Source of the DNA: Flavobacteriaceae bacterium
GTDB taxonomy: Bacteria > Bacteroidota > Bacteroidia > Flavobacteriales > Flavobacteriaceae
Reading direction: 5' to 3'
Assembly (NCBI GenBank): GCA_004762155.1
Contig: SIHP01000008.1
Span: 186,001-250,000, forward strand
Length of the DNA: 64,000 bases
In this document: positions 27,973-58,357 of the stretch, piece by piece
Layout: each line of letters opens with the position of its first letter
Numbering within the stretch: position 1 is the first letter of the stretch
The notes under the pieces: model-generated
What the model was told of the DNA's origin: nothing
Seen by the model: the letters and a program-made list of their open reading frames with translations, nothing else
The model's database searches: none
Position numbers and translations under genes: made by a program

Positions 27973-27973
27973 C

Positions 27974-40701: not shown

Positions 40702-40712
40702 TTGTTAAGATT

Positions 40713-41648: not shown

Positions 41649-41724
41649 TTTTTCATATTTAAAATTATACCTACAAATTTGGAAGAAATTGAGATGTGAA
41701 AACAGCCCAATATTGTGGATAAAA

Positions 41725-41750: not shown

Positions 41751-41751
41751 A

Positions 41752-41787
41752 GCTGTGAATAGGTTTCAAAATGACGACAGTAACAAC
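41752..41787 (-). repeat. Solitary Cas13b-type CRISPR repeat
   Basis: This 36-base sequence reads on the minus strand GTTGTTACTGTCG...ATTTTGAAACC...ATTCACAGC. It has the length, ends and centre of the Cas13b repeats in both arrays, and is closest to the variant repeats at 42375 and 34123. No second repeat lies 30 bases away on either side. It sits beside the 26-base terminator palindrome, just as the last repeat of array 1 sits beside its terminator, so it looks like a detached array end or a stand-alone crRNA unit. Confidence 0.8.
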
Positions 41788-41892
41788 GAAAAGCAATTAT
41801 GTTTTATATATCTAAGCTGTCACTTCGGAGTGAAAATTTGCGTGATAAAATGAAGTATAATTTAATATCGAGAAGTATTCGTTAAGTTATCT

Positions 41893-41940
41893 GTTCTCGA
41901 TACAATTTTCTTTCGTTTCTCTACAGAAAATCACTCGAAC
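41893..41940. repeat. Possible dispersed intergenic repeat
   Basis: The stretch starting 'gttctcgatacaattttc' and ending 'cactcgaac' resembles a dispersed intergenic element that I associate with flavobacterial genomes. A partial inverted match ('tatcgagaag') lies just before it at 41864-41873. It is seen once in the window. With the solitary repeat it occupies the gene-free stretch 41649-42030, in which I see no coding region. Confidence 0.35.
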
Positions 41941-42030
41941 TTACATTGTTTAGGGTTTTATCCAATCGTAATCAATTAGGTTTGCGAGATTATCAGTTTT
42001 GGTATCGTCTGGATTAGATCGTAAATATTT

Positions 42031-42264
42031 TCAATTACTACCATGAACCACCTCTACATTACTTCCTATATCCCAGCCTGAAGTGTTATAGTTCCAAGTC
42101 CAAGTAACCGCTGAGTTTGCTTTATTTTCTAAGAGTTTTATAGCATCCGCTTTTGATTTTTTTGATGCTCTGGTAGTACTTTTTTCATTTACGGTATGAA
42201 AAGCATAATGTGTTATTACATTATTATCATCTTTCCATACTCCTGAAATTCTATATTTTGCCAT
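42031..42264 (-). CDS. DUF3892-family small protein
   Basis: The 77-residue protein opens with 'MAKYRISGVWKDDNNVITHY' and continues with an 'AFHTV...SKSKADAIKLLE' segment, the DUF3892 pattern of a short beta sheet plus one helix. The function of the family is not known to me. It sits between CRISPR array 2 and the solitary repeat, on the same strand as the arrays and the CBASS operon. It has no HEPN or membrane features and so is not a csx27/csx28-type partner. It may have been inserted into an ancestral array. Confidence 0.8.
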   Translation of the reverse strand: MAKYRISGVWKDDNNVITHYAFHTVNEKSTTRASKKSKADAIKLLENKANSAVTWTWNYNTSGWDIGSNVEVVHGSN

Positions 42265-42308
42265 AATTATTTTGTTTTAAGTTATTGAAATGTTTAAATG
42301 AAAATGAA

Positions 42309-42606
42309 GTTGTGAATACATTTCAAATAGATATAAGTCACAACATGGACATATGATGAACGTGGTAATAGATTGTTGTGAATACCTTTCAAAATGAGAT
42401 GAATCACAACTTGTAGGTCATAGAGACTTTTCAAAGGATAGTTGTGAATACATTTCAAATAGATATAAGTCACAACTTAAAGAAAGAAAACTTTACTATG
42501 AGTGCTGTTGTGAATACATTTCAAATAGATATAAGTCACAACAAAATCTGTTTTTTAGACTAATTACAAAGTTGTGAATACATTTCAAATAGATATAAGT
42601 CACAAC
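42309..42606 (-). CRISPR. CRISPR array 2 (type VI-B-like), five repeats
   Basis: Five 36-base repeats start at 42309, 42375, 42441, 42507 and 42571, with spacers of 30, 30, 30 and 28 bases. Four repeats are identical; on the minus strand they begin GTTGTGACTTATATC and end ATTCACAAC. The repeat at 42375 is a variant with a more canonical CATTTTGAAAGG centre. The ends match array 1 but the middle differs at many positions. The leader elements downstream in plus coordinates match array 1, so it is transcribed on the minus strand toward the CBASS operon and cas13b. The 28-base spacer is next to the leader, so it should be the newest. Confidence 0.95.
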
Positions 42607-42722
42607 GTAAACAGGTATATATACTTATAAGCCTTTATATACAAAGGATTATTGTTTTTTTAGAAATTAGAAACCAACATTTTTTGTTTGTTTTAAGCCT
42701 ATAAAAAGCTGTTTTTTTAATC
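42607..42722 (-). promoter_or_regulatory. Leader of CRISPR array 2
   Basis: Directly next to the first repeat the plus strand reads 'gtaaac', then 'ctttatatac', then 'ttattgt' and 'tttag' about 43 bases out, mirroring the leader of array 1. It fills the gap to the stop of the response-regulator gene at 42723. The array promoter should lie here. Confidence 0.65.
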
Positions 42723-43376
42723 TTAACAGTCTTTTTTTGTTAAACCTTTATCATAAGCATAACTTACCAAACCCAACGAACTTTTTACGCCCGTTTTTTC
42801 AATTAAATTTCTACGATAAGTGTCTACCGTACAGGTTGCTATATTTAATTTAAGCGCAATTTCACCAGAAGTATTGTCTTGTGCTAATAATTGTAAAACT
42901 TCTAATTCTCTGCGCGTTAAATGTATGGTTTTAGGTTCAGGTATTTCACTGGTGGTTATATAATTGTCTAATACTTCACCTTTTAAATATCTACGCCCAT
43001 CTATTATAGTTTCTAAAGCTTCTATAAATTCTTGTTTATCTAAATTTTTTAAAATATAACCATTTGCTCCAGCATTTATTAATTCTTTTACAAAAGCACC
43101 TTCGTTATGTGAGGTAAGCATTAGAGTTTTGGTTGGTAAACCTAATTCTTTAATACTTTTAACTACTTCAATACCTGTTTTTACTGGCATTTTTATATCC
43201 AAAACAGCAATGTCTATTTTTTCTTTTTTGGCTTTTAATAATTCCAAAGCTTCCTCGCCATTATACGCTTCGTCAATTACTTTTATATGTGTATTTTGTA
43301 AAAGAGATTTTAAGCCTTGGATAAACATTTTATGATCATCTGCAATAATTATATGTATAGTTTTTTTAGTTTTCAT
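42723..43376 (-). CDS. NarL/LuxR-family response regulator
   Basis: I choose the ATG at 43376 (217 residues, 'MKTKKTIHIIIADDHKMF'); the longer frame only adds an implausible hydrophobic leader inside the kinase gene. The receiver has 'IADDHKMF', the phospho-acceptor in 'IDIAVLDIKMPVKTGI' and Lys in 'NGYILKNLDK'. The LuxR-type output is 'LTRRELEVLQLLAQDNTSGE' followed by 'LNIATCTVDTYRRN'. Its start overlaps the kinase stop by 11 bases, so the pair is translationally coupled. It lies just upstream of array 2 in the direction of transcription, but nothing shows that it controls the defence genes. Confidence 0.92.
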   Translation of the reverse strand: MKTKKTIHIIIADDHKMFIQGLKSLLQNTHIKVIDEAYNGEEALELLKAKKEKIDIAVLDIKMPVKTGIEVVKSIKELGLPTKTLMLTSHNEGAFVKELINAGANGYILKNLDKQEFIEALETIIDGRRYLKGEVLDNYITTSEIPEPKTIHLTRRELEVLQLLAQDNTSGEIALKLNIATCTVDTYRRNLIEKTGVKSSLGLVSYAYDKGLTKKDC

Positions 43377-45489
43377 AGATGTTTGCTTTTTCAATAGGAA
43401 TATCAATAGTAATAGTAGTTCCATTACCTTTTCCAGAGTCAATTTGATAGTTGCCTTTTAGTTTATTAACAATTCTTGAATGGATGTTTTTTAATCCAAT
43501 ACCTTTATGTGTTTCAATGGGGTTAAAACCAATACCATTATCTTCAACAATAATATTAATGGTATCTGTTAATTTTAATAATTGAATATCTACTTGGGTA
43601 GCATTGGCGTGTTTTATAATATTAGTTAATAATTCTTGTAATATTCTATAAATTTGAATTTCTATATTGTTATCAAGTCTAATATCTAATTTATGAAAAC
43701 TTAGGTTAATAAATATTTGTTTTTCATGTTGTTTACTATAAACACTTTCTATGTTTTGTTTCAATTCTTTTAAGGCAGGTATCAATCCAAAATTAGCTAA
43801 TGTACCCGATAACATTTTGTGTGAAATTTCTCTAATATCTGTACAAGCTTCATCTAGTAAAGAGTTCGCCTTTATATAATTTTCATCAGCGTTATTAGTT
43901 AAATTATTACCTACAGATTGGTATAAAATTTTAATAAGTGCAAGTTTGCTACTAAAATTATCATGTAAATCTTCAGCAATCCGTTTACGTTCTTTTTCTT
44001 CACCAGTAACCATTGCGTCAAAAGCCTGCATTTCCTGAGAACTAATTAAGGTTTGTATTTGTTGTTCTTGTTTTGTTTTTTCGTGTGCAATTATTAGTTT
44101 TTGTTGCTTTTCTTTTCGTGCTTTATTCACGAAAAAAAATAAAACACTTAAGAGAAGTATTATTAATATAAGGCTTATGATTAAAATATTTTTCTTAGCA
44201 GTTTTTGATTCTGCAATTTTTTGTTTGTTTAAAGCAGTTGCTGCTTTTTTCTTTTCATTTACATAAGCAACTTCATAACGATCTGCTGCTTTTATTTTAG
44301 AGAAATCTTTTTGTGTAACTAAAAAACTAGAGTCTTTGTATTGATAAGCTAAAGAGTAATTTTTTAAATCTTTATAAACATTGGCTATTGAAGCATACGT
44401 TAGTGAAAGCATAGATGAGTCTTTCAATTTATGCTGAATAGTTAAACTTTTTTTTAAGGATATTAATGCATTTTTGTAATCTTTATTGTCTGAATATAAA
44501 TTACCAATGTTGTTATAAGCGACTAATGTGTAGTTGTTTTTTTTATTTTTTTTGAATTCTATTATTGCTTTCTGATAAAAATAAAATGCGGAATCTTTTT
44601 TTTGTAATTTCCTATATAAAGTAGCGATGTTGTTATAAAGAATACCTTTGTGTCCAACATTATTTTTTAAGATTAAATTTTCTGCATCGTTAAATGTTTT
44701 TTTTGCTAATTCATTTTCATTTAAATAGTCATAAATAGTTGCAATATCTATTTTTAGATTGGCAACTTTCTTTTTGTTTTTCTTTAATTTGTATATAACA
44801 ATAGCTTTTTTAAAGCTTGTTAAAGCTTCAGCATAATTTTTTAATTCTTTTTGTGTTTTCCCTAATCTTTTATAAGCGTATGCAATAGAAAGAGAATCAC
44901 CATTTTTAATACTAAAATCTAGTGCTTTTAAGAAGTATTTTAAAGATTCTTTTTGAGAGTTATATGAGAGGTATAAATCGCCTAAGTTAAGAGCTACTTT
45001 TGCAGCTTGTTTGTGTTTGTTTATTTTTTCAAAAAAAATTAAACTCAATAAATAATGCTCTAAAGAACCAGTGCGGTTTTTTTGTGTTTTAAAAACACGC
45101 CCTAATTGATTGTGATCTCTAGCAATACCATATATATAATTTTGTTTAGTGTCTATTACTAAAGCGTTATTATAATGTTTTTTTGCTTGTTCTAAATAAC
45201 CTTGATACTTTGCAATTCCTCCTAAACGGTTATATGCATCTGAAATTCCTGAATAATAGTTTAGTTTTTTACTTAATTGTAAAGCTTCTAGAGCATAATG
45301 AATTCCAACAGAATCCTTAGTTTTACGTAAGGTCCAAGATAGCTCGTCTAATGTTTTTATTTTTTCTATACCTTTTTGTTTAGATAATACTTGTTGTAAG
45401 CTATCTACATATGTTTGTTTTTGAGCATATGAAAAAAATGTTCCGAAAAGAGCTAAGAAACTAACATAACAGATGGTGTTTTTAATCAT
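43366..45489 (-). CDS. TPR sensor histidine kinase
   Basis: The 707-residue protein has a signal peptide ('NTICYVSFLALFGTFFSYAQ'), about eight TPR repeats (30-400) and one membrane helix near 432-452 ('NILIISLILIILLLSVLFFF'). The NarL-type kinase core has His in 'ERKRIAEDLHDNFSS', N box 'QELLTNIIKHA' and 'VEDNGIGFNP'. It shares architecture with the two kinases at 23.6-28 kb but is clearly a separate paralogue. The TPR part should face the periplasm. The small peptide gene 96 bases upstream is a possible ligand source. Confidence 0.92.
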   Translation of the reverse strand: MIKNTICYVSFLALFGTFFSYAQKQTYVDSLQQVLSKQKGIEKIKTLDELSWTLRKTKDSVGIHYALEALQLSKKLNYYSGISDAYNRLGGIAKYQGYLEQAKKHYNNALVIDTKQNYIYGIARDHNQLGRVFKTQKNRTGSLEHYLLSLIFFEKINKHKQAAKVALNLGDLYLSYNSQKESLKYFLKALDFSIKNGDSLSIAYAYKRLGKTQKELKNYAEALTSFKKAIVIYKLKKNKKKVANLKIDIATIYDYLNENELAKKTFNDAENLILKNNVGHKGILYNNIATLYRKLQKKDSAFYFYQKAIIEFKKNKKNNYTLVAYNNIGNLYSDNKDYKNALISLKKSLTIQHKLKDSSMLSLTYASIANVYKDLKNYSLAYQYKDSSFLVTQKDFSKIKAADRYEVAYVNEKKKAATALNKQKIAESKTAKKNILIISLILIILLLSVLFFFVNKARKEKQQKLIIAHEKTKQEQQIQTLISSQEMQAFDAMVTGEEKERKRIAEDLHDNFSSKLALIKILYQSVGNNLTNNADENYIKANSLLDEACTDIREISHKMLSGTLANFGLIPALKELKQNIESVYSKQHEKQIFINLSFHKLDIRLDNNIEIQIYRILQELLTNIIKHANATQVDIQLLKLTDTINIIVEDNGIGFNPIETHKGIGLKNIHSRIVNKLKGNYQIDSGKGNGTTITIDIPIEKANIYEN

Positions 45490-46529: not shown

Positions 46530-46784
46530 AATATTAATTTTTAGTTAGAGAAACTAAGTTACGTTATGTATTAATAAGTTTTGAAATAAGTTTAATAAGT
46601 GTATAAATAAGAGGTGTAAGAGTAAGAAATTATGGGATGAAAAGTGTTTTTTTAAATCAAATTATTACTGTGTCGTATTTCACGTTGTTTTTTACGTTAT
46701 TCGCGACATTTTTAATTTAGTAGTCTTGTAATGAGGTAGTTTTGTGTCAGTTGGTTTTGTTAATCAATTCAAAATTATATCAAT

Positions 46785-47729
46785 ATGAGTGATGTTAAAA
46801 AACTTCAATTTGGGGATCTGAATTATAATTATAATCAGGTAAAAGTTGGCGATAAAGATGCACAATCTGAACTTATTTTAAATGTGTATTACACCACGGA
46901 AAAAATGGTTATTTACAGAACCAAAGGCAATCTTGTAATTACGTATAGCGCTTATGCGAATCGTTTTTCAATTCTAAATGCAAAAAAGCAAGAAATAAAC
47001 AATTTACTTCAGTATAAGATAAACCAAGAACAAAAGAATAATAGTGAAAAGACTTTAGAAGATTTAAGAGTTTTTTATGCGCCTCAATTAGCGCATGCTT
47101 ACCAAATGTGTTATTTAGAAGAATATGAAGAAGCTATTTTAATAGCTGAAAACATTAAAAAAAGTATTGAAAACAGCATAATATCTAAGGCTCAATACAC
47201 CTACTTTAGTTATTATTTAAAGTACATTCTTTACGTATTTGGTGTAACTGCACTTTTCTTATTATGGAATAGCTTAAAAATTGCAGAAAAAAATGCCATA
47301 CCTAATTGGTTTGTTTGGCATATTTATATTGCTGTTGCAGGAATTATAGGCTCTTTTATCTCTGCAAAAGAAAAAGTAGCTAACAGAACTATAGATTTCA
47401 ACATTCCAACAAAACGAACCATTTTAGATGTAAAACTTAGAGTCTTATTAGGAGGTTTGTTTGGAATTCTAACAGTATGGTTAGTGTATTCAAAAGTTTT
47501 AATGGGTTTCTTAGAAGGACAAATAAACACCAATTTATTTGGTAGCGGAAATGTAGCTTTTTCTCAAAAAATAACAGTATTACTTATCGGAATTATAGGC
47601 GGATTTAGTGAACGTTTGGTACCAGATACTTTACAAGCGAAGTTAAATGATATACCAAATAAAAAGGATACAAACGAAGAAGTTAAAAAAATAGCCAAAG
47701 CAGTAAATGAGGCTAAAAAAAAGAACTAA
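46785..47729 (+). CDS. Four-helix membrane protein, first gene of the caspase operon
   Basis: This 314-residue protein has a soluble N-terminal half (about 1-140, with a helical 'LAHAYQMCYLEEYEEAIL' region). Four membrane helices follow, near 147-163, 178-197, 222-243 and 258-276. A conserved-looking 'GGFSERLVPDTL' and a basic, charged tail end the protein. The 'iGGFSERLvpd' motif after the last helix is seen in several unassigned bacterial membrane proteins, but I cannot give a function. It is the first of six same-strand genes spaced by 4-44 bases, so it probably anchors a complex made by the operon. Confidence 0.75.
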   Translation: MSDVKKLQFGDLNYNYNQVKVGDKDAQSELILNVYYTTEKMVIYRTKGNLVITYSAYANRFSILNAKKQEINNLLQYKINQEQKNNSEKTLEDLRVFYAPQLAHAYQMCYLEEYEEAILIAENIKKSIENSIISKAQYTYFSYYLKYILYVFGVTALFLLWNSLKIAEKNAIPNWFVWHIYIAVAGIIGSFISAKEKVANRTIDFNIPTKRTILDVKLRVLLGGLFGILTVWLVYSKVLMGFLEGQINTNLFGSGNVAFSQKITVLLIGIIGGFSERLVPDTLQAKLNDIPNKKDTNEEVKKIAKAVNEAKKKN

Positions 47730-47773
47730 ATATTTAGAAATAAAAATAATTATTAACCAAAACTATTATAATC

Positions 47774-48382
47774 ATGTCAGAAATTAAAGACGAAAAGAAA
47801 AAAGAAAACGAAAATTGGGGAAGAACTTTAATGTTAACTCCCAAAGAAGAAAACATTCAAGAAATTTTACTAAAGTTTATGGAAGACAAAGGAGAAGGAG
47901 GTTGCCCTGCATTTTCACCAGACTTTATGTTAAGAAATTTAAAAGATAATTTTAATGCAAAAAATTTAATTGTAGGACCTAAAACGTTAGAAAAAGTATT
48001 ATTAAAATCTTCAGCGTTACATTTTGATAGTGAAGTTACAGGTACGGTTTCAAAATATCAAAATAAAGCAACGGTTACCTATACTTTTTCTCCTAATAGT
48101 TCTGATGATATTATTATCGCTAAAATTGGCGGTAAAGAAATTTCAAAAGGAGAACACACCATAGAAAACGTTGGTTTAACCGTTTTTTATAAACTTCAAA
48201 TTCAGTTAGAATATGCAGGAATTGTAGATTGGAAATTAGTAATAACAGCTATAGAAGCTGATGGAATTCCTCTTAAACTTTTGAATTTCGACGAAGGAAA
48301 TATTAAAGTTTCCAATAATTCTACTATTAAAGTTAGAGACAAATCAGTTGTAAATAGATTTTTAAATACTCTTGAAATATAA
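47774..48382 (+). CDS. Protein of unknown function, beta-rich
   Basis: The 202-residue soluble protein starts with a charged leader ('MSEIKDEKKKENENWGRTL'). A helical section with 'GGCPAFSPDFMLRNLKDNF' follows, then a beta-rich half ('ATVTYTFSPNSSD', 'GIVDWKLVITAIEADGIPLK'). There is no signal peptide or known catalytic motif. It ends 5 bases before the next gene, so it is certainly in the same operon as the caspase-like peptidase. No family is recognised. Confidence 0.7.
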   Translation: MSEIKDEKKKENENWGRTLMLTPKEENIQEILLKFMEDKGEGGCPAFSPDFMLRNLKDNFNAKNLIVGPKTLEKVLLKSSALHFDSEVTGTVSKYQNKATVTYTFSPNSSDDIIIAKIGGKEISKGEHTIENVGLTVFYKLQIQLEYAGIVDWKLVITAIEADGIPLKLLNFDEGNIKVSNNSTIKVRDKSVVNRFLNTLEI

Positions 48383-48387
48383 TTTGT

Positions 48388-49809
48388 ATGAAAAATAAGA
48401 TTTTAATAATACAAGTAATGTTTATGCCATTACTTGTATTTACCCAAAACTTGGGTACAGATATAGAGGGCTATAGTACAATTTACACTAAAGGCTCAAA
48501 TTTAAGCTTAGATGCTATAAATAACACACTCAATTTTGATTTTTACAAGAGCACGAAATTTAAAAAGGACTTGAATACTGATGCGCATAAATCAGAAATT
48601 TATGGAGTAAGTGTTAAAGGGAAATCAAATAACGGATTAGCAAATTTGATAACTTCAGGAGAGATTAACGCGGCTACACAAATTAATTTGGTTTATGGTT
48701 CAAGATATTATAAAAATAAAAAAGTCAATAACTATCAGGATAAAGTCGATGAAATTCAAAATGAACTTTCAGAACTAGTTCAACCAATAATAGCTTTAAG
48801 AGCTAAGATTTCTGATGAGTTAGCAAAACAAAAAAAGCAATATATTCATGGATTTGTAGAGGATATGAATGGCTTGTTAGATGCTGATAAAAATGAGTTG
48901 AAGAGCATTATAGTTAACAAAGAACCTTGGAAAGAAAAAGAAAAAAAGATTAAAATATTGGAAATTGATTCAGAAGAAGAATTACTAGAAAAAATCTCAT
49001 TGTTTAATGACAAGGTCAAAGGATACAGAACTGGTGGGCAGCCAGATATATGGAGACAAATAAAGAATAACTTACAAAAACTTCACTATATCAACACCAC
49101 AACTATCAATACATTATTAGATGAAATGATTCTACATAATATAGATAATGACGCATTAGAAGAAGAGTTGAGAAAGCTAAAAGAAGGTGATGCTACAATT
49201 AATGCTTTCTTGGTCAAGGTTGGAGTATCAGAACAAGAATTTCAATACGATTTAGATAATAGCGGAGCAACAGCAGAAGAACGTATAAAGGATGAAGAAT
49301 TTACAGCACTCTCTTTTGAAATTATCTTTAACAAACAATTTAAATACTACAATTTCTTTGGAATCTCCTTTAAAGGAGAACGCGCTAATAATTTTGATGC
49401 TTTAGAAGCTAAAGAAATTACTTTTGGTGAAGCAGGTACAGAAAACGAAGAAACCTACAGTGCTTTTGCAGGAGATTACGATACGTTCAACCGTTTTTCT
49501 TTTAATGCAGATTATATGCGATTAGTTCCCATTGATTCAGAAGGTACAGATAATATGTATTTAACGATAAATCCGTATGTAAGACACTTTGTTTACAGTG
49601 GTGCAACAAATTTGAAAAACAACACCAATTTAGGTTTAGGAGTGAATATTTTCAACAAAACAAATAATAAACTAATGGGTGGTGCATTTGTACAAGCAAA
49701 CGATATTTTTAGCGTAAATACCAAACAAGCTTTAGGTAGAAAAGTAGCCATTGGGCTGGTCGTAAAGTTTGCTTTTGAAGGCTTTAATTTTGAAGAAAAA
49801 ATAGATTAA
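48388..49809 (+). CDS. Exported protein, coiled coil then beta-rich domain
   Basis: The 473-residue protein has a signal peptide ('KNKILIIQVMFMPLLVFTQ'), so it enters the periplasm or outer membrane. Residues about 110-270 are strongly helical and charged. Residues about 285-473 alternate strands ('FEIIFNKQFKYYNFFGISF', 'MYLTINPYVRHFVYSG', 'KVAIGLVVKFAFEGFNF') in a way that suggests an outer-membrane barrel or beta sandwich ending in an aromatic-rich strand. The family is not recognised. Lying between cytoplasmic-type proteins and a peptidase, it suggests that the operon product spans the envelope. Confidence 0.72.
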   Translation: MKNKILIIQVMFMPLLVFTQNLGTDIEGYSTIYTKGSNLSLDAINNTLNFDFYKSTKFKKDLNTDAHKSEIYGVSVKGKSNNGLANLITSGEINAATQINLVYGSRYYKNKKVNNYQDKVDEIQNELSELVQPIIALRAKISDELAKQKKQYIHGFVEDMNGLLDADKNELKSIIVNKEPWKEKEKKIKILEIDSEEELLEKISLFNDKVKGYRTGGQPDIWRQIKNNLQKLHYINTTTINTLLDEMILHNIDNDALEEELRKLKEGDATINAFLVKVGVSEQEFQYDLDNSGATAEERIKDEEFTALSFEIIFNKQFKYYNFFGISFKGERANNFDALEAKEITFGEAGTENEETYSAFAGDYDTFNRFSFNADYMRLVPIDSEGTDNMYLTINPYVRHFVYSGATNLKNNTNLGLGVNIFNKTNNKLMGGAFVQANDIFSVNTKQALGRKVAIGLVVKFAFEGFNFEEKID

Positions 49810-49822
49810 AATAAACTGTATT

Positions 49823-50845
49823 ATGCATAAAAAAATAGCACTTTGCATTGGTATTAACGAATACGCTCCTAGAGCCAATGCAGTACCTTTAGAAGGATGC
49901 GTAAATGATGCGTTACTTTGGCACAATATTTTAAAAAAGAATTACAGCTTTAAAATGCGACAACCTTTATTAAATAGGTTTGCTTCATTTAAAAATATTA
50001 AGAAACAAATAAAAAGATTTTTAAAAGATTTAAATGAAGGCGACTTAGGCGTAATTTTTTTTTCAGGGCATGGAACAAGAAATACAAGAGGTGGTATGTG
50101 TTATGAAGCCATACAAACTTTTGATAAATGTATTGAAGGAAATACACACATGAGAGCTTGGGTTGATAAGTATAAGCACCCAAAAGCAAAATTTGTTTTT
50201 ATTGCAGATTCTTGTCATTCAGGAACATTTTTAGAGTTAGGAAGATGCTGTGCTAAAGCAATATACTGTGCTCATAAAAAGAATGAAAGCCTTACAACAC
50301 CTATAGATTTTACTAAAATCGACACAAAAAAAGAGTTCAAAGAATTTGTTGAAACCAAACTTTTTGAAACGGATTTTAATATCGATATGAATGTCATTGA
50401 AGACTACATTGATGTTTCTGATTCGTTAAAAGAAAAGTTAGTAGATAAAATTACGTATTTAAACAACAATCCACAGGAACTCAAAGAAATGTTAGTTGCT
50501 GTTTACTTGAATGCGAAGGTTAAAAGAATTCCACCAAAAAACGTATGTATAGCAGATCTTACCGAAGAGGGCAGTGTGTTTTTTGAAACTCAAAACGAAT
50601 ACGAAATTATGATTGCTGCTTGTTGGAGCAACCAAGAAGCCTACGAAACGGATTTCAGTGGCACTAAGCACGGAATATTTTCAAAGTTAACTATTGATCT
50701 TCTGAAAAATAACAATATGACTTACAATGAGTTTTATACTCAGGTTTTACAGAAGTTCGAAGGCCATAAATGGTCAAAACTCAAGCAAAAACCCTTATTA
50801 CAAGGACATAACCAATTTAAAAATCAACTTATATTTAAAAATTAA
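49823..50845 (+). CDS. Caspase-like (metacaspase) peptidase
   Basis: The 340-residue protein opens with 'KKIALCIGINEYAPRANAVP' and has catalytic His83 in 'IFFSGHGTRN' and Cys131 in 'FIADSCHSGTF', with 'GCVNDALLW' between strands 1 and 2: a peptidase C14 domain. An insertion of about 100 residues after the Cys (about 150-260) is acidic. The later part resumes the fold with 'EIMIAACWSNQEAYE' and 'GIFSKLTIDLL'. No signal peptide is present, so it works in the cytoplasm. Unlike the CBASS peptidase of this window, it is flanked by unknown proteins and a LytTR regulator. The target is unknown; a partner protein within the operon is plausible. Confidence 0.92.
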   Translation: MHKKIALCIGINEYAPRANAVPLEGCVNDALLWHNILKKNYSFKMRQPLLNRFASFKNIKKQIKRFLKDLNEGDLGVIFFSGHGTRNTRGGMCYEAIQTFDKCIEGNTHMRAWVDKYKHPKAKFVFIADSCHSGTFLELGRCCAKAIYCAHKKNESLTTPIDFTKIDTKKEFKEFVETKLFETDFNIDMNVIEDYIDVSDSLKEKLVDKITYLNNNPQELKEMLVAVYLNAKVKRIPPKNVCIADLTEEGSVFFETQNEYEIMIAACWSNQEAYETDFSGTKHGIFSKLTIDLLKNNNMTYNEFYTQVLQKFEGHKWSKLKQKPLLQGHNQFKNQLIFKN

Positions 50846-50849
50846 AAAT

Positions 50850-51353
50850 ATGATTACAAAAGCACCAGTACCAAGAAATATGCGGGAAGTCAACCAAACT
50901 GTTTTTTCTAATTTAATCATTAACGATTACACCAACTTTCAATTAGCACATGCAGAAACAGATAAAGAAAAAAGTTTTTTAGTTTTAATACGTTTTGAAG
51001 ACGGAATAGAACAAGGCGAGAATCATAAAATTACAAAAATGGGATTTGTATTGGTAAATGCCTTCAATAATATTCCAGATGGAAAATATTACATCATCAA
51101 TAGTGTTGAAAAAACAACATCAACAGATGAAGTATATCAACAAGGAATGTTTAATTTAACCGTTAAAATTGAATTGGCTGATGACCCAAGCGAAGCAGTA
51201 TACTATTTAGAAGAAGAAACTGTATTAAAGAGCAAAGGTGAGCTAATAGATATTCATATTAAAGATAAACATGAAGAGGATGAGATTATATCATGGAGGC
51301 CAAAAAATACTGGCGGACATCTTTGTAAAAGTAAAACATCTAAAGGTGGTTAA
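50850..51353 (+). CDS. Protein of unknown function after the caspase gene
   Basis: I place the start at the ATG at 50850, 4 bases after the caspase stop, giving 167 residues; the longer frame overlaps the peptidase. It is a soluble, acidic, beta-rich protein ('SFLVLIRFEDGIEQG', 'GMFNLTVKIELADDP', 'LIDIHIKDKHEEDE') with no signal peptide. I recognise no family. The tight spacing suggests that it works with the peptidase, for example as its inhibitor, adaptor or substrate, but this is inference. Its end overlaps the TPR/LytTR frame. Confidence 0.65.
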   Translation: MITKAPVPRNMREVNQTVFSNLIINDYTNFQLAHAETDKEKSFLVLIRFEDGIEQGENHKITKMGFVLVNAFNNIPDGKYYIINSVEKTTSTDEVYQQGMFNLTVKIELADDPSEAVYYLEEETVLKSKGELIDIHIKDKHEEDEIISWRPKNTGGHLCKSKTSKGG

Positions 51354-52908
51354 TGTTTTTTACGCATTACTTTTTTTATTATTGTTTTCTGGTAATATTG
51401 TTTCCTTACAAGCTCAAGAATACAAAACATTCATTCAAGAATTAAAGTTAGGAAATATTGAAAAAGCTAGTCAGTTAGTTGAAAAAAGTAGTCAAGGTAA
51501 AGCGGTAAAGAGTTTTTTACTAATTTATCTTGATTACCTCAAAACAGGAAATTACCAACAACAATCATTTCCTACAGAAGAAATCGCTAAAAAATCATTT
51601 CCTGCTACCTATAAATCCATGTATTATTATATGTATGGAGATATTATAAAAGGAGAATATATGGATAGTGACTTCTTTTATCCGTTGTATTTAAAAGCAC
51701 TAGATATAGCAGAAAAAGAAAATAATAAGGTATTAGAAAATGAAGCTTTAAAAAGACTGTTGCATCACTTTCAAAGAAATCCGTTAAACCTTAAATTATA
51801 TGAGTCTTATAAAAATCGGTTTTTAAAAAACGCAAAAGATTCTATAAATATGCTTTGGGCTAAATACTATGATATTAGCTTTAAAGTACATAAAGAATGT
51901 TTACGAAAAAAAGTGTACAAAAAAAAAGGAACTCAAAAAGATTTTACAACTTCCATAGATACAGTGGTGTTTCAAAATTTATTAAATGCCAAAGTAGCTA
52001 CAAAACAGACATTCTTTAAAGCAAGAGTACATCAAATGTTTGGAATTTGTCAAGATGTTTTAAAGGAAGATCCAAAAAGAGGTAAAAGTAACTTTGAAAA
52101 AGCCCAGCAGTATTTTGAAGAAAGCACCTATCATTTTTCAAAAAAAGAAGTTGTAAGAGCTACTATTAATAAAGGATGCGCATTAAAATTAGCAAGAGCT
52201 TACAACGAAGCAATTATAGTTTTAAAAAGTGCTGTCAATTTTAAAGATTCCATAAAGCAACTCACAGAAAAACGTGTTGTATACCAACAGTTATCAGATT
52301 GTTATGATTCGTTAAGAAAAATAGACAGTGTTAATTATTGTATCAAGCAAAAGATATATGTCGATAAATTAATAAGTGAATATACTTTAGCTGAGAAAAT
52401 TTATAGTTTAGATTATGATAATCGGATCTATACTATTAAAGAAGAGAAAGAAAAACTAAATAAAGATAATCAAATGTTATTTATAGGAGGAATCGTTTTA
52501 TTAATAATTTTAGTATTGGTTTACTATAATTGGTGTGTATCTAAAAAAGAAAATAAAAATTTAGAAGTAAAACACGAACAAGTTATAGAAGAAATAAAAT
52601 CGATAAAAAAACTGGTAATACAAGATCGTATTGTTTTAAAAAATAAAGTGCACGTATTGTTAGATGAATTAATATATATAAAGGCAGAAGACCATTATTT
52701 AGCGTTGCATACTGTTAATAAAAAGGAGTTTATTAGAGGGAAAATTTCAAGTATTCTAAAAGAATTACCACCTAATTTTGTAAGAAGTCACCGTTCTTAT
52801 ATTGTAAATAAGAACCATCTTGTTAAGGTTGATAATAAGGGAATAATATTGAAAGAAAATAAAGAAATACCACCACCGTCTAGGACCTATAAAAATAATT
52901 TCATTTAA
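51271..52908 (+). CDS. Membrane-bound TPR/LytTR transcription regulator
   Basis: The frame encodes up to 545 residues. The first 25 overlap the previous gene; a GTG at 51346 would start directly at a good signal-anchor ('ALLFLLLFSGNIVSLQAQ') and is my preferred start. TPR-like repeats occupy about 50-385, one membrane helix lies near 406-424 ('MLFIGGIVLLIILVLVYYNW') and a short coiled coil follows. The C-terminus (about 450-545) is a LytTR DNA-binding domain with 'LIYIKAEDHYLALHT' and 'FVRSHRSYIVNKNHL'. It is a one-component envelope sensor that binds DNA from the membrane, probably regulating this gene cluster. The operon ends here. Confidence 0.85.
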   Translation: MKRMRLYHGGQKILADIFVKVKHLKVVNVFYALLFLLLFSGNIVSLQAQEYKTFIQELKLGNIEKASQLVEKSSQGKAVKSFLLIYLDYLKTGNYQQQSFPTEEIAKKSFPATYKSMYYYMYGDIIKGEYMDSDFFYPLYLKALDIAEKENNKVLENEALKRLLHHFQRNPLNLKLYESYKNRFLKNAKDSINMLWAKYYDISFKVHKECLRKKVYKKKGTQKDFTTSIDTVVFQNLLNAKVATKQTFFKARVHQMFGICQDVLKEDPKRGKSNFEKAQQYFEESTYHFSKKEVVRATINKGCALKLARAYNEAIIVLKSAVNFKDSIKQLTEKRVVYQQLSDCYDSLRKIDSVNYCIKQKIYVDKLISEYTLAEKIYSLDYDNRIYTIKEEKEKLNKDNQMLFIGGIVLLIILVLVYYNWCVSKKENKNLEVKHEQVIEEIKSIKKLVIQDRIVLKNKVHVLLDELIYIKAEDHYLALHTVNKKEFIRGKISSILKELPPNFVRSHRSYIVNKNHLVKVDNKGIILKENKEIPPPSRTYKNNFI

Positions 52909-53160: not shown

Positions 53161-53192
53161 AAATCCCGAAGCCATACCAAACTTCGGGATTT
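53161..53192. terminator. Bidirectional terminator between the two operons
   Basis: An 11-base perfect stem 'aaatcccgaag'/'cttcgggattt' with a ten-base loop. For the minus-strand operon it is followed by a T-rich run ('ttttttattttttaac'), and for the plus-strand operon by 'ttaac'. It lies 36 bases after the last minus-strand gene. Confidence 0.85.
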
Positions 53193-53228: not shown

Positions 53229-53897
53229 TTAACTCAAAACAATAACAGTATCAGCACGTATAACTTGAGTACTACCAGAAATATAAGCAGGATTTTGTTC
53301 AGAGAATGTTGATTCATCTGTTAACTCACTTTCCACAATATTTTCTGCAAATGAATAATTTAAATTGTACTCGTTAAGTAAAATTTGTATTTCCGAAAAT
53401 GTTCTTTTTTCTGTTGTAGTTTTCCCGTTAGTATCAGTAATAGTTTTCTCTATAAGGTTAGGTAAAAAACGTATAATTTGAGTGTCAGATGGCGGAACAG
53501 GCATAATATCAAACTGAATTTCTGCACTTGCATTTAAATTCATATTGTATTTGTTTGTATTTGTTGCATTTACTGGAGTTGCATACATTTTAGTGCGAAA
53601 AGCTTGTCCGCCATTTAAAACACTAGAAGATTGTTGCGATAAGGATAATGATATTTTAGCTTTTGCTGTAGTTTTCGGAATCGTATAAAATGTAGGTTGA
53701 TATCCGATTTCTCGTAATAACTTTAAAGAAGCTTCAGAATTATCAGGATCTGAATTATAAATCTCTAAAGTTTGTCTTAAAGATCCTTTATCTAATGCAG
53801 CTTGTGCCTCGCCAACTCCTTCCCCAATGGAAGCAATAAAATCTCCTAAAGGTGCAGCAAAAGCGTCTTTTAAATAATCGTTTGAATTGTTTGACAT
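53229..53897 (-). CDS. 'AQxALD' family paralogue, last gene of the operon
   Basis: This 222-residue protein has the family head 'FAAPLGDFIASIGEGVGEAQ' followed by 'AALDKGSLRQT', then 'REIGYQPTFYTIPK' and the strand 'AKAKISLSLSQQ'. A beta-rich middle follows ('MNLNASAEIQFDIMPVPPSD'), keeping the terminal Pro-Pro feature of its relatives. The last 80 residues ('TFSEIQILLNEYNLNYSFAE') are unique to this copy. No signal peptide or catalytic motif is seen. It starts 4 bases after the PASTA gene stop. Function is unknown; it is probably a structural component with the other paralogues. Confidence 0.75.
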   Translation of the reverse strand: MSNNSNDYLKDAFAAPLGDFIASIGEGVGEAQAALDKGSLRQTLEIYNSDPDNSEASLKLLREIGYQPTFYTIPKTTAKAKISLSLSQQSSSVLNGGQAFRTKMYATPVNATNTNKYNMNLNASAEIQFDIMPVPPSDTQIIRFLPNLIEKTITDTNGKTTTEKRTFSEIQILLNEYNLNYSFAENIVESELTDESTFSEQNPAYISGSTQVIRADTVIVLS

Positions 53898-53901
53898 GGT
53901 T

Positions 53902-55647
53902 TTAGTTTTTTAATGGTTTTGCAAAAATTACAAGCACTTCTTGTCCTGGAGTTAATGCAGCTCCAGCTTCTGGTATTTGTTTAATTGCTTGTCCTTTTAT
54001 AAAATTTGGATTATCGGTTGGTTGGTAAATAACATCTAATTTTAATCCGTAATTTGTAATAATTTTTCTAGCAGCAGTTTCCGTAAGTCCTATAATGTTA
54101 GGTACACTATTTTCTGTTTTTACAGCGGTTGTATTCGGAACAATATCAATACTAATATCACTTATTGCAGCAGCGTTAATATCTTTAGCAGATTCAAAAT
54201 CAACCAAACCAAATAAGGTTCCTTCTGGTCCTTTTTCTACAGTAGCTTTTAGATTTAATGAAATATTTGCCATTTTAAATCGCGAAGTATCCATTTCTGC
54301 ATCAGCAATAGCAATATCGTTAATAATACTACTATATACTTTTTTAGCATCTAATTTATTAGGATTCTCAGCATCAACATAACTTTGTATTTCGGTTACT
54401 TTGGTTTCTAGTTTAGAAATTTCAATTTCTTTTACCGCTGTATTTTGAGCAAGTGTAGCTATTTCATTATTTTTTTCTGAAACAAGTTGTTGTGATGTTT
54501 TTACTTTTTCAACTAAATCATCAATAGCATTTTGTTGATTTTGTAAATCGTTTTTAGCTTTTTCAACTTCTAAAAGTATCAATTGCTTTTCTTCTTCAAG
54601 TACATTTTGTGTTTTTTGAAAACCTTCAATAATGTTCGTTTTTTCTAATAGAACTTCTTTAAGTTTATCAGCCTCAGAAGTATCATTTTTTAAGATTGAT
54701 ATTTCTTTTTTTAGTATTTCTATTTCCTGATTTTTCTCTTCTAAATTGTATTGAAGAATAGCAGTTTTTTCTTCATAACTAACAACTAAATTTTCTAATT
54801 CTTTAATACGAATAGTAAGTTCATCTTTGTTTTCTTCAGAAGATTTTAGAATTTCTATTTCTTCTTGTAAACCAAGCATTTGTTCGTTTTGCTTATTTAA
54901 CTTTTCTAATAGAGATTCAATTTCATTGGTTTTAGCTTCTAAAGTTTTTATAAGTTGATTAAACTCATCTGAATTATCATCCTTAAAAGAACTATTAAAT
55001 TGTTCTTTTAGGTTAGCAATTTCATTAAGACTGTTTTCTAAAGATTGTTTTAGTAATGATTCTGTTTCTTCATGTTCATCTAAATGTTCGTGAAGTTCTT
55101 TCAATTGATGCTCAAATTTTTCGGTAGCCTTTTTAAAGTCATCAGCTTGCTGTTTTGTTAAATCAATAAGTACTGTATTTTCTTCTTGTAAACCTAAAAA
55201 CTCTTTTTGAAAATCATATAAATAAAAGGGAGAAGCAATAATTAGTGCGCTTTCTTTTTTGATGTATAACGAAGGATCTAAAAGCCAAAGTTTCTGAAAA
55301 TCAATAACAATTTCTAACTTTTCTTCATCAAAAAAAATAGCTGGGGCTTCAGAAATAGTTAAAGTTTCTTTCTCGTTAGATTTTACAATTCTAAACATTG
55401 GTAAACTTCCTTCACTCATGCAATCACGAACAAGTCTAGTAATCACTTCTTCCTTAGCAAGACGAACAGGAATCTCATATGCAAGAGCTAATAACCCTTT
55501 TTTTGTTTCAATTCCCGTAACCAATTTTCCCCAAGTTTTGTTTTCTATATCTAAAAATTCAATATCTATTGAATAGGATTTTAAAGCAGTATTGTTAGCA
55601 GCTAACAAATCGCATTTAAAAAGTAAAGCGCGGTATTTAGTAGCCAT
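53902..55647 (-). CDS. Coiled-coil protein with C-terminal PASTA domain
   Basis: The 581-residue protein has a beta-rich N-terminal domain (about 1-175) and a long coiled coil (about 178-430). A compact domain follows at about 440-512 ('RFKMANISLNLKATVEKGPE', 'AAISDISIDIVP') that looks like the Trypco2 (trypsin-co-occurring) domain. One PASTA domain spans 515-581 ('VPNIIGLTETAARKIITNYG', 'KQIPEAGAALTPGQEV'). PASTA domains bind peptidoglycan or act as protein spacers, but no signal peptide is visible here, so it may be cytoplasmic. It starts 3 bases after the preceding gene's stop. The Trypco2 resemblance would link the operon to conflict systems. Confidence 0.78.
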   Translation of the reverse strand: MATKYRALLFKCDLLAANNTALKSYSIDIEFLDIENKTWGKLVTGIETKKGLLALAYEIPVRLAKEEVITRLVRDCMSEGSLPMFRIVKSNEKETLTISEAPAIFFDEEKLEIVIDFQKLWLLDPSLYIKKESALIIASPFYLYDFQKEFLGLQEENTVLIDLTKQQADDFKKATEKFEHQLKELHEHLDEHEETESLLKQSLENSLNEIANLKEQFNSSFKDDNSDEFNQLIKTLEAKTNEIESLLEKLNKQNEQMLGLQEEIEILKSSEENKDELTIRIKELENLVVSYEEKTAILQYNLEEKNQEIEILKKEISILKNDTSEADKLKEVLLEKTNIIEGFQKTQNVLEEEKQLILLEVEKAKNDLQNQQNAIDDLVEKVKTSQQLVSEKNNEIATLAQNTAVKEIEISKLETKVTEIQSYVDAENPNKLDAKKVYSSIINDIAIADAEMDTSRFKMANISLNLKATVEKGPEGTLFGLVDFESAKDINAAAISDISIDIVPNTTAVKTENSVPNIIGLTETAARKIITNYGLKLDVIYQPTDNPNFIKGQAIKQIPEAGAALTPGQEVLVIFAKPLKN

Positions 55648-55649
55648 AA

Positions 55650-56360
55650 TTAGTGTTTTTGAATTGAGATTTTAGTAAAAACTGTTCCTACATTAATATC
55701 AACCTGAATCGTGTTTTTAGCATTATAATCAGTGGTGTCTATAGCAATAGTATTGGTTGCTTTTCCGTTAATATCACTTGCAATTTCTCCTTGTTTTACA
55801 AAGTTGGTATTGTGGTTTAAAACAGTATTAGGATTTAAGATGATGGTTTTGTCTTTGTTATAATTAAACTCAACTAAAGCACCAGGAATATTTTCACCTG
55901 CAGAGTTAAACACACTAACTTCAATATCATAAATATTAGCGTTTGTATTTGATTGTTTCGGAATTGCTTCAATAATTAGTTGAGGTAAACCTTCATTTGG
56001 TGCAATAGCAACAAAACGACCAGAAATACTACTGGTAATTTTATCAGATTCACTTGTGCTACTTGTTTTACTAACTGGACGATATGTCATAACCGGAGCA
56101 GGAGAATATAACATTTCAGATGTAGCATATTTTCCATAGCCGGTACTTTGATCGTAAGTTCCGTCTGTAGTTGAACTGGTTTCCAATTCAGTTTCTACTT
56201 GTAATGTAAAATCTAAATACGGTAATGTATATAAAGTATTCGGACGACCATATTCATCATAAGGAGCAGCATTACGTAATTGATGTTGTGCTTCGTTTAA
56301 GCTCTCTGAAATTCCGAGTAATATTTCTTTTAAGGTGATAGATGTATTTTGTGTGCTCAT
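55650..56360 (-). CDS. Divergent 'AQ' family paralogue with beta-sandwich tail
   Basis: The 236-residue protein has a shorter family head ('LKEILLGISESLNEAQHQL') and, instead of 'GFxPTFY', the segment 'TLYTLPYLDFTLQVETELE', so it is the most divergent member. Residues about 130-236 form a beta sandwich of Ig or invasin-like type ('YDIEVSVFNSAGENIPGALV', 'GEIASDINGKATNTIAI'), a fold used in surface or scaffold proteins. No signal peptide. It is flanked by gaps of 2 and 21 bases. Some features recall DUF2589-like proteins, but I am not certain. Confidence 0.65.
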   Translation of the reverse strand: MSTQNTSITLKEILLGISESLNEAQHQLRNAAPYDEYGRPNTLYTLPYLDFTLQVETELETSSTTDGTYDQSTGYGKYATSEMLYSPAPVMTYRPVSKTSSTSESDKITSSISGRFVAIAPNEGLPQLIIEAIPKQSNTNANIYDIEVSVFNSAGENIPGALVEFNYNKDKTIILNPNTVLNHNTNFVKQGEIASDINGKATNTIAIDTTDYNAKNTIQVDINVGTVFTKISIQKH

Positions 56361-56381
56361 AATATTTATTTGGTATGTAAA

Positions 56382-57851
56382 TTAGAATGAAAATGGATCT
56401 TTTTTGGATGCTGATTTCTTTTTAGTAGGAAGCTCATCTGCAAACTCTTTTATTTTTTTTGCAGCAGAAAAAATTTCGGAGACATTAATTGTATTAAAAC
56501 CTTTAGCTGTTTTTTCTTCTTTTTTAGTAAAAATTTTATCTAAAGAATTTAACTCCAGTGAAGCTTCTTCTTTCTTATCTGACTTTTTTAATTCACCAGA
56601 ATTATTAAAAAGATTATCAACAGTTGTAATCGTTTTAGTTGTTTTATCTAAATGCTTTTTTGTGTTTTCATAAAAGTTATTCACTTTGTTTAATTTTTCA
56701 CTTAAAAGGTTAGCATCTTTAGTATTTGTTTTTATAGTTGGTAACGGGTTTTTAATTCCGTTTTTTTTTTGTTTTAATTGATTTATACTTTTAACAAAAT
56801 CTGTTTTCTTTTTATCTATTTTATTAAAAGTATTTAGTGTTTTCTCAGCAGTATTAACAACTGTTCCAACTGTTTTAATGACCGTAGAAAAAGTTTTGTT
56901 TTCTAAAACAGCCTTTTTATTATTTGATGTATTTTCTTTTTCACCAAGCTTGTTAGAAAGTAAACTACTTACTTTGTTTATGTTTTTAGAAACATCATTC
57001 GTAATTGAACTTACTTTTTTAATTGTTTTAGAAGCGGTATCTATTGTACCTGTGACCTTTTTTAATTCTTCGGTTGCTTTTGTTTTCTTTTTATTAACCT
57101 GAACAAGTTTATCAGAAAACTTAGTAATTTTAGTATCAGTTTTTTCAACAGTTTTAGAAACGTTGTTTAATGTGTTACTTATCTTTTTTAAACCTGTTGA
57201 TATTTTTGTTTTCTTATTGTTTGTTTGGCTTATTTTCTCAGAAAACCGAGTTAGATTCTTATCTGTTTTGGCTATGGTTTTTGAAGTGTCATTACTAATA
57301 GTTGAAACTTTCTCAGTCGCTTTTTTTAGATTGTTAAAAGTTTTTAATGAGGTTTTGGATTGTCTTTTTTTAGTAGCAAATTCTGTTTTATCTTTTCTCT
57401 TTTTAGAGAATAGATTTTTTGGTTTTTCTTGTTTTTTTCTAGTTGTATCTACATTAAAAAAGTCCTTTTTCTTTCTATTCCAATTACTATTTTCTTTAGC
57501 ATTATTTTTCCTTTTTTTAAGAAGTTTATTTTTCTTTTTTTCTTCTTTACGTTCTTCTTTTCTTTTTTGATAAACAGATTTTATCTCATGATCATATTGT
57601 TTTTTGGTAGTAGAATGCTCTTCTGTTTTACCAGTAAGAGCATTCATATTTTGTTCTAGTTCTTTTTGCTCCTCAAGCAAGCTTTTTAAATTAATATTGG
57701 ACGCAGCAATATCTTCTAACGATTTCTCATTAGTAGCAGGTTGAAGTAAATCAGGTAAAGAAAAATTTTCATTTTCTTCATTTTCTTCATCTTTTACCAA
57801 ATTTTTAGTTGGTTCTTCTTGCTTAATAAGCTGTTTCCAATGCTTTGCCAT
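56382..57851 (-). CDS. Lysine-rich coiled-coil protein
   Basis: Nearly the whole 489 residues are low-complexity Lys/Asn/Ser/Thr helix. Residues about 80-160 are very basic ('KKKNKLLKKRKNNAKE'). The middle has tandem units of about 55 residues seen as 'SKTIAKTDKNLTRFSEKISQ' and 'SKTVEKTDTKITKFSDKLVQ', a filament-like coiled coil. No enzyme or membrane motif is present. It lies 3 bases after one family paralogue and 21 bases before another, so it should be part of the same assembly, for example as a rod, tether or nucleic-acid-binding part. Homology to a known tape-measure protein is not visible. Confidence 0.72.
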   Translation of the reverse strand: MAKHWKQLIKQEEPTKNLVKDEENEENENFSLPDLLQPATNEKSLEDIAASNINLKSLLEEQKELEQNMNALTGKTEEHSTTKKQYDHEIKSVYQKRKEERKEEKKKNKLLKKRKNNAKENSNWNRKKKDFFNVDTTRKKQEKPKNLFSKKRKDKTEFATKKRQSKTSLKTFNNLKKATEKVSTISNDTSKTIAKTDKNLTRFSEKISQTNNKKTKISTGLKKISNTLNNVSKTVEKTDTKITKFSDKLVQVNKKKTKATEELKKVTGTIDTASKTIKKVSSITNDVSKNINKVSSLLSNKLGEKENTSNNKKAVLENKTFSTVIKTVGTVVNTAEKTLNTFNKIDKKKTDFVKSINQLKQKKNGIKNPLPTIKTNTKDANLLSEKLNKVNNFYENTKKHLDKTTKTITTVDNLFNNSGELKKSDKKEEASLELNSLDKIFTKKEEKTAKGFNTINVSEIFSAAKKIKEFADELPTKKKSASKKDPFSF

Positions 57852-57854
57852 TTT

Positions 57855-58340
57855 TTAAGGAGTGTTTAAGTTATCTCTTTTATCTTCAAGTTCAGTTGCT
57901 ATCATCGCACGCAAGCGTTGTTCAAATACAGGCGGATTTGGTACGGCTACCAATTTGGTGCGTAACATAGAACTCCCTTCTGCCGAATATTGATATTTCT
58001 GAGAATAACTAGCAGAAACAGAAGCACTAACAGCAACAAAACCTACACTTGCACCAGCACTTACGGAAACCGAAGCACCAAACTCTTTTGTTTGACTCAT
58101 AGAAACAGACATTTTCATTTCTAAAACAGTATCTACATATTGATAAAATGTAGGTGTAAAACCAAGGGAAAGCAAACTATATTCTTCGCCTCCCATATCC
58201 ACTTTAGTATCTACCAACTCTTTTGCTAGTTCCATAGAAACTTTATCTAAGGCGCGTTGTGCTTGAGCAATTCCAATACCAAGTGTTTTTACCATTTCTG
58301 GTAAAGGTGCATTTAAAATTTCTTTAGTAATACTTCCCAT
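57855..58340 (-). CDS. 'AQxALD' family paralogue, minimal form
   Basis: This 161-residue copy shows the family in its simplest form. The head is 'NAPLPEMVKTLGIGIAQAQR' followed by 'ALDKVSMELAKE'. The core is 'SLLSLGFTPTFYQYVD' and the strand 'LEMKMSVSMSQT'. A Gly/Ala/Ser-rich beta stretch follows ('FGASVSVSAGASVGFVAVSA'), and the end piece is 'QYSAEGSSMLRTKLVAVPNP'. No insertion is present. It is probably cytoplasmic. It makes the best query for finding distant relatives. The gene is 17 bases after one paralogue and 3 bases before the coiled-coil gene. Confidence 0.78.
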   Translation of the reverse strand: MGSITKEILNAPLPEMVKTLGIGIAQAQRALDKVSMELAKELVDTKVDMGGEEYSLLSLGFTPTFYQYVDTVLEMKMSVSMSQTKEFGASVSVSAGASVGFVAVSASVSASYSQKYQYSAEGSSMLRTKLVAVPNPPVFEQRLRAMIATELEDKRDNLNTP

Positions 58341-58357
58341 TTTAGTGTGTTATTAAA

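What the first reader, a model, noticed from the sequence alone, without database searches (positions are those of the whole stretch)
46785..52908. Caspase operon with envelope proteins and a LytTR regulator
Six tightly packed genes combine a four-helix membrane protein, an exported coiled-coil/beta protein, a caspase-like peptidase, two unknown proteins and a membrane-bound TPR/LytTR factor. The set spans cytoplasm, inner membrane and outside, and it faces the paralogue operon across one shared terminator. It may sense envelope damage or an invader and trigger proteolysis.
Basis: partly seen in the sequence, partly recalled or inferred. Interest (0 to 1): 0.62.

Follow-up and report, generated by a model that had tools for sequence, protein, structure and literature searches.

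The report
Orphan caspase operon with envelope module
A bacterium close to Tenacibaculum carries a rare six-gene cluster that joins a caspase-type protease to a membrane-bound gene regulator and to a two-gene cell-envelope module found on its own elsewhere, which makes it a plausible but untested defence or stress cassette, with no sign of a link to the neighbouring operon.

Summary
The six genes are real and packed as described: membrane protein TM314, p202, exported exp473, a metacaspase-like protease with His83/Cys131, p167, and a membrane LytTR regulator (TPRs not confirmed). The hairpin called a shared terminator has its T-run only for the opposite operon.

The link to the paralogue operon is not supported. 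That operon is widespread (at least 8 of 10 genes in 70 of 80 loci) with no relative of the five non-LytTR proteins in the held flanks. Eleven exp473 carriers lack it; one of 29 tested paralogue carriers has exp473, elsewhere in the genome.

The cassette looks composite. exp473 occurs in 12 further loci, nine with a p202-type gene directly before it, none with the caspase within 20 kb. TM314, p167 and a full-length caspase orthologue were seen only here in the genomes sampled. The regulator fits a wider pattern: 20 of 24 small-caspase loci in other Bacteroidota adjoin a histidine kinase and/or response regulator (6 of 80 control loci), and the window holds such an operon, with a CD-NTase, 1.3 kb away.

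Most likely: a rare, regulated caspase cassette that borrowed an envelope module. Defence, sensing and substrate are inferred.

The parts
46571..46612 (+). two tandem imperfect 21-nt direct repeats upstream of the operon; possible operator (weak)
   Evidence: the repeat finder; spacing as in LytTR operators (recalled); may be chance in AT-rich DNA
46785..47729 (+). TM314: membrane protein, long soluble N-terminal part, about four TM helices
   Evidence: ORF, hydropathy; own genome only among 395 of the phylum
47774..48382 (+). p202: soluble protein, first gene of the p202-exp473 module
   Evidence: ORF; blastp E 0.001-0.004 to L133 and L150; profile match to soluble relatives P 1.5e-4
48388..49809 (+). 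exp473: exported protein with a conserved, barrel-like (inferred) C-terminal half
   Evidence: ORF; relatives in 12 further loci; alignment A7
49823..50845 (+). casp340: caspase-fold (metacaspase-like) peptidase, His83/Cys131
   Evidence: Pfam PF00656 4.2e-21; metacaspase-4 6w8s 1.1e-8; motifs
50850..51353 (+). p167: soluble protein of unknown family
   Evidence: ORF; own genome only among 166 of the genus
51271..52908 (+). membrane-anchored LytTR regulator, probably exported helical N-terminal part (a GTG start at 51346 is also possible)
   Evidence: Pfam LytTR 1.2e-17; AgrA LytTR domain in PDB 1.9e-4; hydrophobic segments
53161..53192 (-). terminator-like hairpin of the opposite paralogue operon
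   Evidence: T-run on the - strand only

Best explanation
A rare accessory caspase cassette in a defence neighbourhood, built from three parts. (1) A cytoplasmic metacaspase-type protease (casp340) with a partner of unknown role (p167). (2) A membrane one-component regulator whose exported helical domain senses a signal and whose cytoplasmic LytTR domain controls the operon, taking the place of the histidine-kinase/response-regulator pair that accompanies most of the small caspases sampled in relatives. (3) A separately inherited envelope module, p202-exp473 plus the membrane protein TM314, which puts an exported, probably outer-membrane, component outside the cytoplasmic membrane and a soluble domain inside. 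Proposed course: an envelope event such as phage contact or damage is registered by exp473 and the regulator, the cassette is induced, TM314/p202 relay the state to the caspase, and cleavage of p167 or host proteins stops growth. Shown: gene order, caspase residues, LytTR domain, the recurrent p202-exp473 pair, and the recurrent sensor-caspase linkage elsewhere. Inferred: outer-membrane location, the relay, the trigger, the substrate and defence itself.
For: Caspase family match and dyad. LytTR domain with signal-like and TM segments. Of 24 small-caspase loci in 17 other genomes, 20 have an HK and/or RR relative within 5.2 kb, 16 of them upstream on the same strand, against 6 of 80 control loci; Fisher 1.4e-12, loci not independent. 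A caspase operon of that kind with TIR/Cap15 and CD-NTase lies at 37880-45489. A p202-family gene directly precedes exp473 in 10 of 13 loci, the window included; in five of them it is fused to two hydrophobic helices, which suggests that a membrane part and the p202 domain act together, as TM314 and p202 could here. L162 lies beside an integrase-like gene (by eye) and an ATPase with sub-threshold AAA/nSTAND hits, L150 near a TIR gene. Occurrence is patchy: 5 of 166, 7 of 397 and 5 of 249 genomes at E<=0.001, own genome, weak hits and one fragment included.
Against: No other genome with the whole set was found, so the six genes are not shown to be one functional unit. None of the 12 other exp473 loci carries the caspase, TM314 or p167 in the 20 kb fetched. 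An HK or RR lies near 2 of those 12 loci too. The regulator shows no similarity to the neighbouring kinase's TPR part and Pfam sees no TPR in it; nor does it in the kinase beside the nearest caspase relative, L122. casp340 is a long branch of unsure place. The window's p202 matches the membrane-anchored forms only weakly on its own (P 0.028). exp473 gave no usable model (pLDDT 31), so the barrel is unproven. PADLOC recognises none of the other five proteins. G+C gives no sign of foreign origin.
Confidence: 0.4

Rival explanations
1. Two unrelated units that happen to abut: an envelope pair (p202-exp473, perhaps with TM314) of ordinary surface function, and a separate caspase-p167-LytTR unit.
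For: exp473 occurs without a caspase within 20 kb in 12 of 12 other loci. Single-query searches found no full-length casp340 relative in 97 and no p167 in 166 genomes of the genus besides the own.
Against: All six genes run in one direction with gaps of 4-44 nt or an overlap; the consensus scan found no + strand terminator inside the operon.
Confidence: 0.3
2. A regulated protease system for envelope stress, development or surface remodelling, not defence: LytTR switches on the set and the caspase processes envelope or cytoplasmic proteins.
For: Exported and membrane proteins are prominent; LytTR regulators often control surface traits (recalled); in two genomes of another genus the exp473 relative is followed by a matrixin-like protease (Pfam on one, the other alike by eye).
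Against: Patchy occurrence of the module and a defence neighbourhood fit accessory defence better.
Confidence: 0.2
3. The caspase operon and the facing paralogue operon are one system.
For: They converge, 320 bp apart; one Kordia genome holds both exp473 and the paralogues.
Against: 0 of 80 paralogue loci have relatives of the five non-LytTR proteins nearby; exp473 in 1 of 29 paralogue genomes, paralogues in 0 of 11 exp473 genomes; matching DNA in the two closest relatives ends at the boundary.
Confidence: 0.03

Closest known systems
Prokaryotic metacaspases/orthocaspases (Peptidase_C14; PMC3501461, abstract start seen in a search listing)
   Same: Caspase fold with the SGHG...DSCHSG dyad; plant metacaspase-4 is the best solved relative by sequence
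   Different: About 110 residues between the p20- and p10-like parts, set in an operon with envelope and LytTR genes
HK-RR-caspase operons of Bacteroidota (seen here; no paper found in the searches named)
   Same: Small caspase beside a membrane sensor and regulator, with variable partner genes
   Different: A one-component LytTR protein instead of HK plus RR; no TIR or CD-NTase in this operon
EACC1 two-gene membrane caspase system (PMC7159879, passages read)
   Same: Caspase linked to a proposed membrane-associated sensor; casp340 matches NCBIfam caspase_w_EACC1 weakly
   Different: Score 32 against a cut-off of 140; no EACC1-like gene recognised
Canu caspase-nuclease defence (PMC12799240, passages read)
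   Same: Caspase in loci with proteins of unknown function
   Different: No nuclease family matched in this operon
Immune operons with upstream regulators, CapK/CapS (PMC13373217, passages read)
   Same: A regulatory gene set controls an immune operon
   Different: CapK/CapS are a kinase and a STAS-domain repressor upstream; here a membrane LytTR protein is encoded last

Membership tests
Caspase/metacaspase (PF00656) | caspase domain above the curated cut-off, with catalytic His and Cys | tested here: met
   76.1 bits against 21.4; H83 and C131
Caspase/metacaspase (PF00656) | protease activity and P1 specificity | not testable with these tools
   Arg/Lys preference is guessed from metacaspase motifs (recalled)
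LytTR transcription regulators | LytTR DNA-binding domain | tested here: met
   64.3 bits against 22.6
TPR membrane regulator | detectable TPR repeats | tested here: not met
   no TPR family listed by Pfam with the limit at E 10; TPR-like only by eye
p202-exp473 envelope module | exp473 homologue preceded directly by a p202-family gene | tested here: met
   10 of 13 loci; the window's p202 by P 1.5e-4 against soluble relatives
EACC1-caspase two-gene system | caspase above the NF047832 cut-off and a 5' EACC1 gene | tested here: not met
   32.2 bits against 140; TM314 and p202 match no NCBIfam model at E<=0.1
Canu | caspase-linked nuclease | tested here: inconclusive
   no nuclease family in the operon, but p202 and p167 have no known family
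CBASS / Thoeris | CD-NTase or TIR gene in the same operon | tested here: not met
   none recognised at 46785-52908; they are in the separate operon 37880-45489
Partner of the paralogue operon | co-occurrence in other genomes | tested here: not met
   one Kordia genome has both, on different contigs

The most novel reading that the evidence does not exclude
An outside-in bacterial caspase pathway: an exported, probably outer-membrane protein (exp473) with its inner partner p202 and the membrane protein TM314 detects contact or damage at the cell surface and switches on a cytoplasmic caspase, with transcription set by a membrane-spanning LytTR regulator in the same operon. The envelope module would be an interchangeable sensor, coupled elsewhere to a matrixin-like protease or an amidohydrolase.
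Probability: 0.15. Interest if true: 0.78.

Novelty: new variant of a known kind. Interest (0 to 1): 0.5.

Why it matters
Of the bacterial caspase systems named in the passages read (type III CRISPR, gasdermin/CARD, NLR, Thoeris, canu, EACC1), only EACC1 is given a proposed membrane-associated sensor there. A caspase operon with exported and membrane parts, and the wider finding that most small caspases sampled here sit beside a histidine kinase or its response regulator, suggest that surface signals may control caspase cassettes in Bacteroidota. That can be tested with a catalytic mutant and a sensor deletion.

Tried and rejected
Linkage to the paralogue operon: tested from both sides and not found beyond one Kordia genome. 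p167 as a relative of the small proteins beside other caspases: profile P 0.24, rejected. TM314 as a relative of the two-helix domains fused to p202, or of the membrane protein in L152: P 0.055 and 0.41, not shown. LytTR genes near exp473 pairs: 4 of 12 loci against 5 of 80 controls, but some of these served as seeds for the search and the taxa differ, so not used. Base composition: G+C of the operon 29.1% against 29.9% for the window; third-position G+C of the six genes is 15.8-26.1% against 15.3-18.0% for four comparison genes outside the defence region, at most a faint sign. Structure of exp473 from one sequence: pLDDT 31, useless. The paralogue protein par161 gave pLDDT 55 and a best PDB match of E 5.2. 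Weak PDB hits of the exp473 profile (E 0.059 or worse) fall in its middle and were taken as coiled-coil noise; those of the p202 profile are E 0.31 or worse. Viral contigs: no relative of the paralogue family or of TM314. Plasmids: no relative of TM314, exp473, p202 or p167; the caspase hits listed cover the p20 part only; one paralogue hit.

Rows dropped: G733 and G1007 (weak, 53 and 57 residues) and G1055 (a C-terminal fragment, 1e-60) are not counted as exp473 loci. Caspase rows with open frames over 500 aa, near contig ends or with stops were not fetched as caspase loci, so the 24 loci are a chosen part of the rows. L189 holds a second caspase, not counted apart. In one search the printed list was cut; one search recounted all 80 loci.
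Full report
OBSERVATION. Six co-directional ORFs fill 46785-52908. The gaps are 44, 5, 13 and 4 nt, and the last gene overlaps p167 (or starts at a GTG at 51346). The longest ORF in 300 shuffles was 147 aa, so all six exceed chance. The caspase matches Peptidase_C14 at 4.2e-21 and plant metacaspase-4 at 1.1e-8, with SGHG at 81 and DSCHSG at 129; H83 and C131 are invariant among four compared caspases. The last gene has a LytTR domain (1.2e-17) and two hydrophobic segments, but Pfam lists no TPR in it with the limit at E 10. The hairpin between the two operons has its T-run on the minus strand only, so it suits the paralogue operon.

PARALOGUE OPERON. One scan of genomes of 84,980 species with paralogues from the window and from a Sphaerotilus plasmid found 196 encoded relatives and kept 80 loci, by their titles mostly Bacteroidota and Pseudomonadota. 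At least 8 of the 10 genes were found in 70 of 80 loci and at least 6 in 78 of 80. None of the 80 has a relative of TM314, p202, exp473, casp340 or p167 within the held flanks (10 kb or less, tblastn E<=1e-3, which would miss distant p202 relatives); four have a match to the LytTR protein. In the two nearest relatives, both Tenacibaculum, the matching DNA stops at 53232 and 53248, in the end of the last paralogue gene, and other genes follow. In genomes: exp473 is in 1 of 29 paralogue carriers searched (Kordia jejudonensis, on another contig); paralogues are in 0 of 11 other exp473 carriers and 1 of 40 genus controls that I picked. I take the two operons to be independent.

THE ENVELOPE MODULE. 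With exp473 as query, 4 other genomes of the genus (of 166) and then, by profile, others in the family (7 of 397 with the own genome) and in a second genus (5 of 249) carry relatives. After dropping two weak rows and one fragment, and adding Kordia, there are 13 loci including the window. A p202-family gene lies directly before exp473 in 10 of 13, at -35 to +60 nt. L152 and L162 have other small genes there that could not be shown to be related, and L151 a lipoprotein-like gene. Homology between the soluble and membrane-anchored forms of p202 rests on a profile comparison (probability 95%, P 6e-8; single controls P 0.017 or more). The window's p202 alone gives P 1.5e-4 against the soluble relatives and P 0.028 against the anchored ones. 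In five loci the p202 domain is fused to two hydrophobic helices and a charged linker. What follows exp473 varies: a matrixin-like protease in L149, with a look-alike 370-aa gene in L160; an Amidohydro_2 protein in L148; a small gene and then an N6/N4 methylase in L150; the caspase in the window; in several loci no gene follows closely on the same strand. No caspase, TM314 or p167 relative was found by blastp in the 20 kb around any of the other 12.

THE CASPASE SIDE. Caspase hits were taken from 97 genomes of the genus and 29 paralogue carriers. Of these, 24 loci in 17 genomes with open frames of 500 aa or less were fetched. Within 5.2 kb, 20 of 24 have a blastp relative of the window's histidine kinases and/or of its LuxR-type response regulator: 16 upstream on the same strand, 1 downstream, 3 divergent. 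L173, L175, L177 and L178 have none. Among 80 paralogue loci used as controls, 6 have one near the centre, and among the 12 other exp473 loci 2 do; Fisher P for 20 of 24 against 6 of 80 is 1.4e-12, with the caution that the loci are related and that the controls differ in taxa and in the stretch looked at. TPRs were checked by Pfam only in the window's kinase, where they are clear, in a kinase of L170, where they are found too, and in the L122 kinase, where none is listed. The window's casp311 operon is one of this kind. casp340 itself is a long branch of unsure place; its highest-scoring caspase relative is about 34% identical, in a Dokdonia MAG, in a run of genes with a small protein, a kinase and response regulators. 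By single-query search, TM314 was found only in the own genome among 395 of the phylum, p202 only there among 149 of the family and p167 only there among 166 of the genus. A single-sequence p202 search misses distant relatives, as the exp473 loci showed.

MECHANISM. Best reading: an accessory caspase cassette under a membrane LytTR regulator, which has taken up an envelope module. Shown: the parts and their recurrence. Inferred: that the six act together, that the trigger is at the envelope, that p167 is a substrate or inhibitor, and that the purpose is defence. The strongest rival is chance adjacency of an envelope pair and a caspase unit.

LITERATURE. Seven library searches were made. Those for caspase, bacteria, antiphage and LytTR, for two-component, antiphage, caspase and Bacteroidetes, for Thoeris, caspase-like and two-component system, and for defense islands, response regulator, histidine kinase and CBASS returned no paper. 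Passages of PMC13373217, PMC7159879 and PMC12799240 were read. They describe other caspase systems and other immune regulators; the passages seen do not describe this set. The library is partial, so this does not show that the pattern is unpublished.

Noticed in passing
window 34559-45489 (-): An operon-like run: TPR histidine kinase, response regulator, caspase, TIR+Cap15-domain protein, DncV-like CD-NTase, a 210-aa protein, and a 1096-aa protein with two RxxxxH motifs for which Pfam, NCBIfam, PADLOC and PDB searches gave no meaningful match. L180 and L190 keep a similar order (extra genes in L180) with 64-65% identical ~1085-aa proteins.
   Followed up: partly
window 34123-34491; L180 737-1914; L190 2-803: CRISPR-like arrays at the end of that run: in the window six 36-nt repeats every 66 nt, starting GTTGTGAAT and ending GTCACAAC, with two identical spacers; in L180 and L190 the middles of the repeats vary strongly. 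With the double-HEPN-motif protein this suggests a divergent Cas13b-like system (recalled) next to a CD-NTase operon.
   Followed up: partly
L122-L125, L174, L176, L179-L192: 20 of 24 small-caspase loci adjoin a histidine kinase and/or LuxR-type response regulator; several also hold TIR or CD-NTase relatives.
   Followed up: partly
L123 11522-12322, also L174, L176, L179, L182: A 262-268-aa family of unknown function encoded between the response regulator and the caspase; a candidate caspase partner.
   Followed up: no
window 53229-63181; L031-L110: A widespread ten-gene operon of unknown function with several paralogous proteins, a PASTA protein and a TPR-like protein.
   Followed up: partly
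window 23574-28618 (+): Two near-duplicate proteins that look like TPR histidine kinases in tandem, followed by a LuxR-type response regulator (by eye).
   Followed up: no
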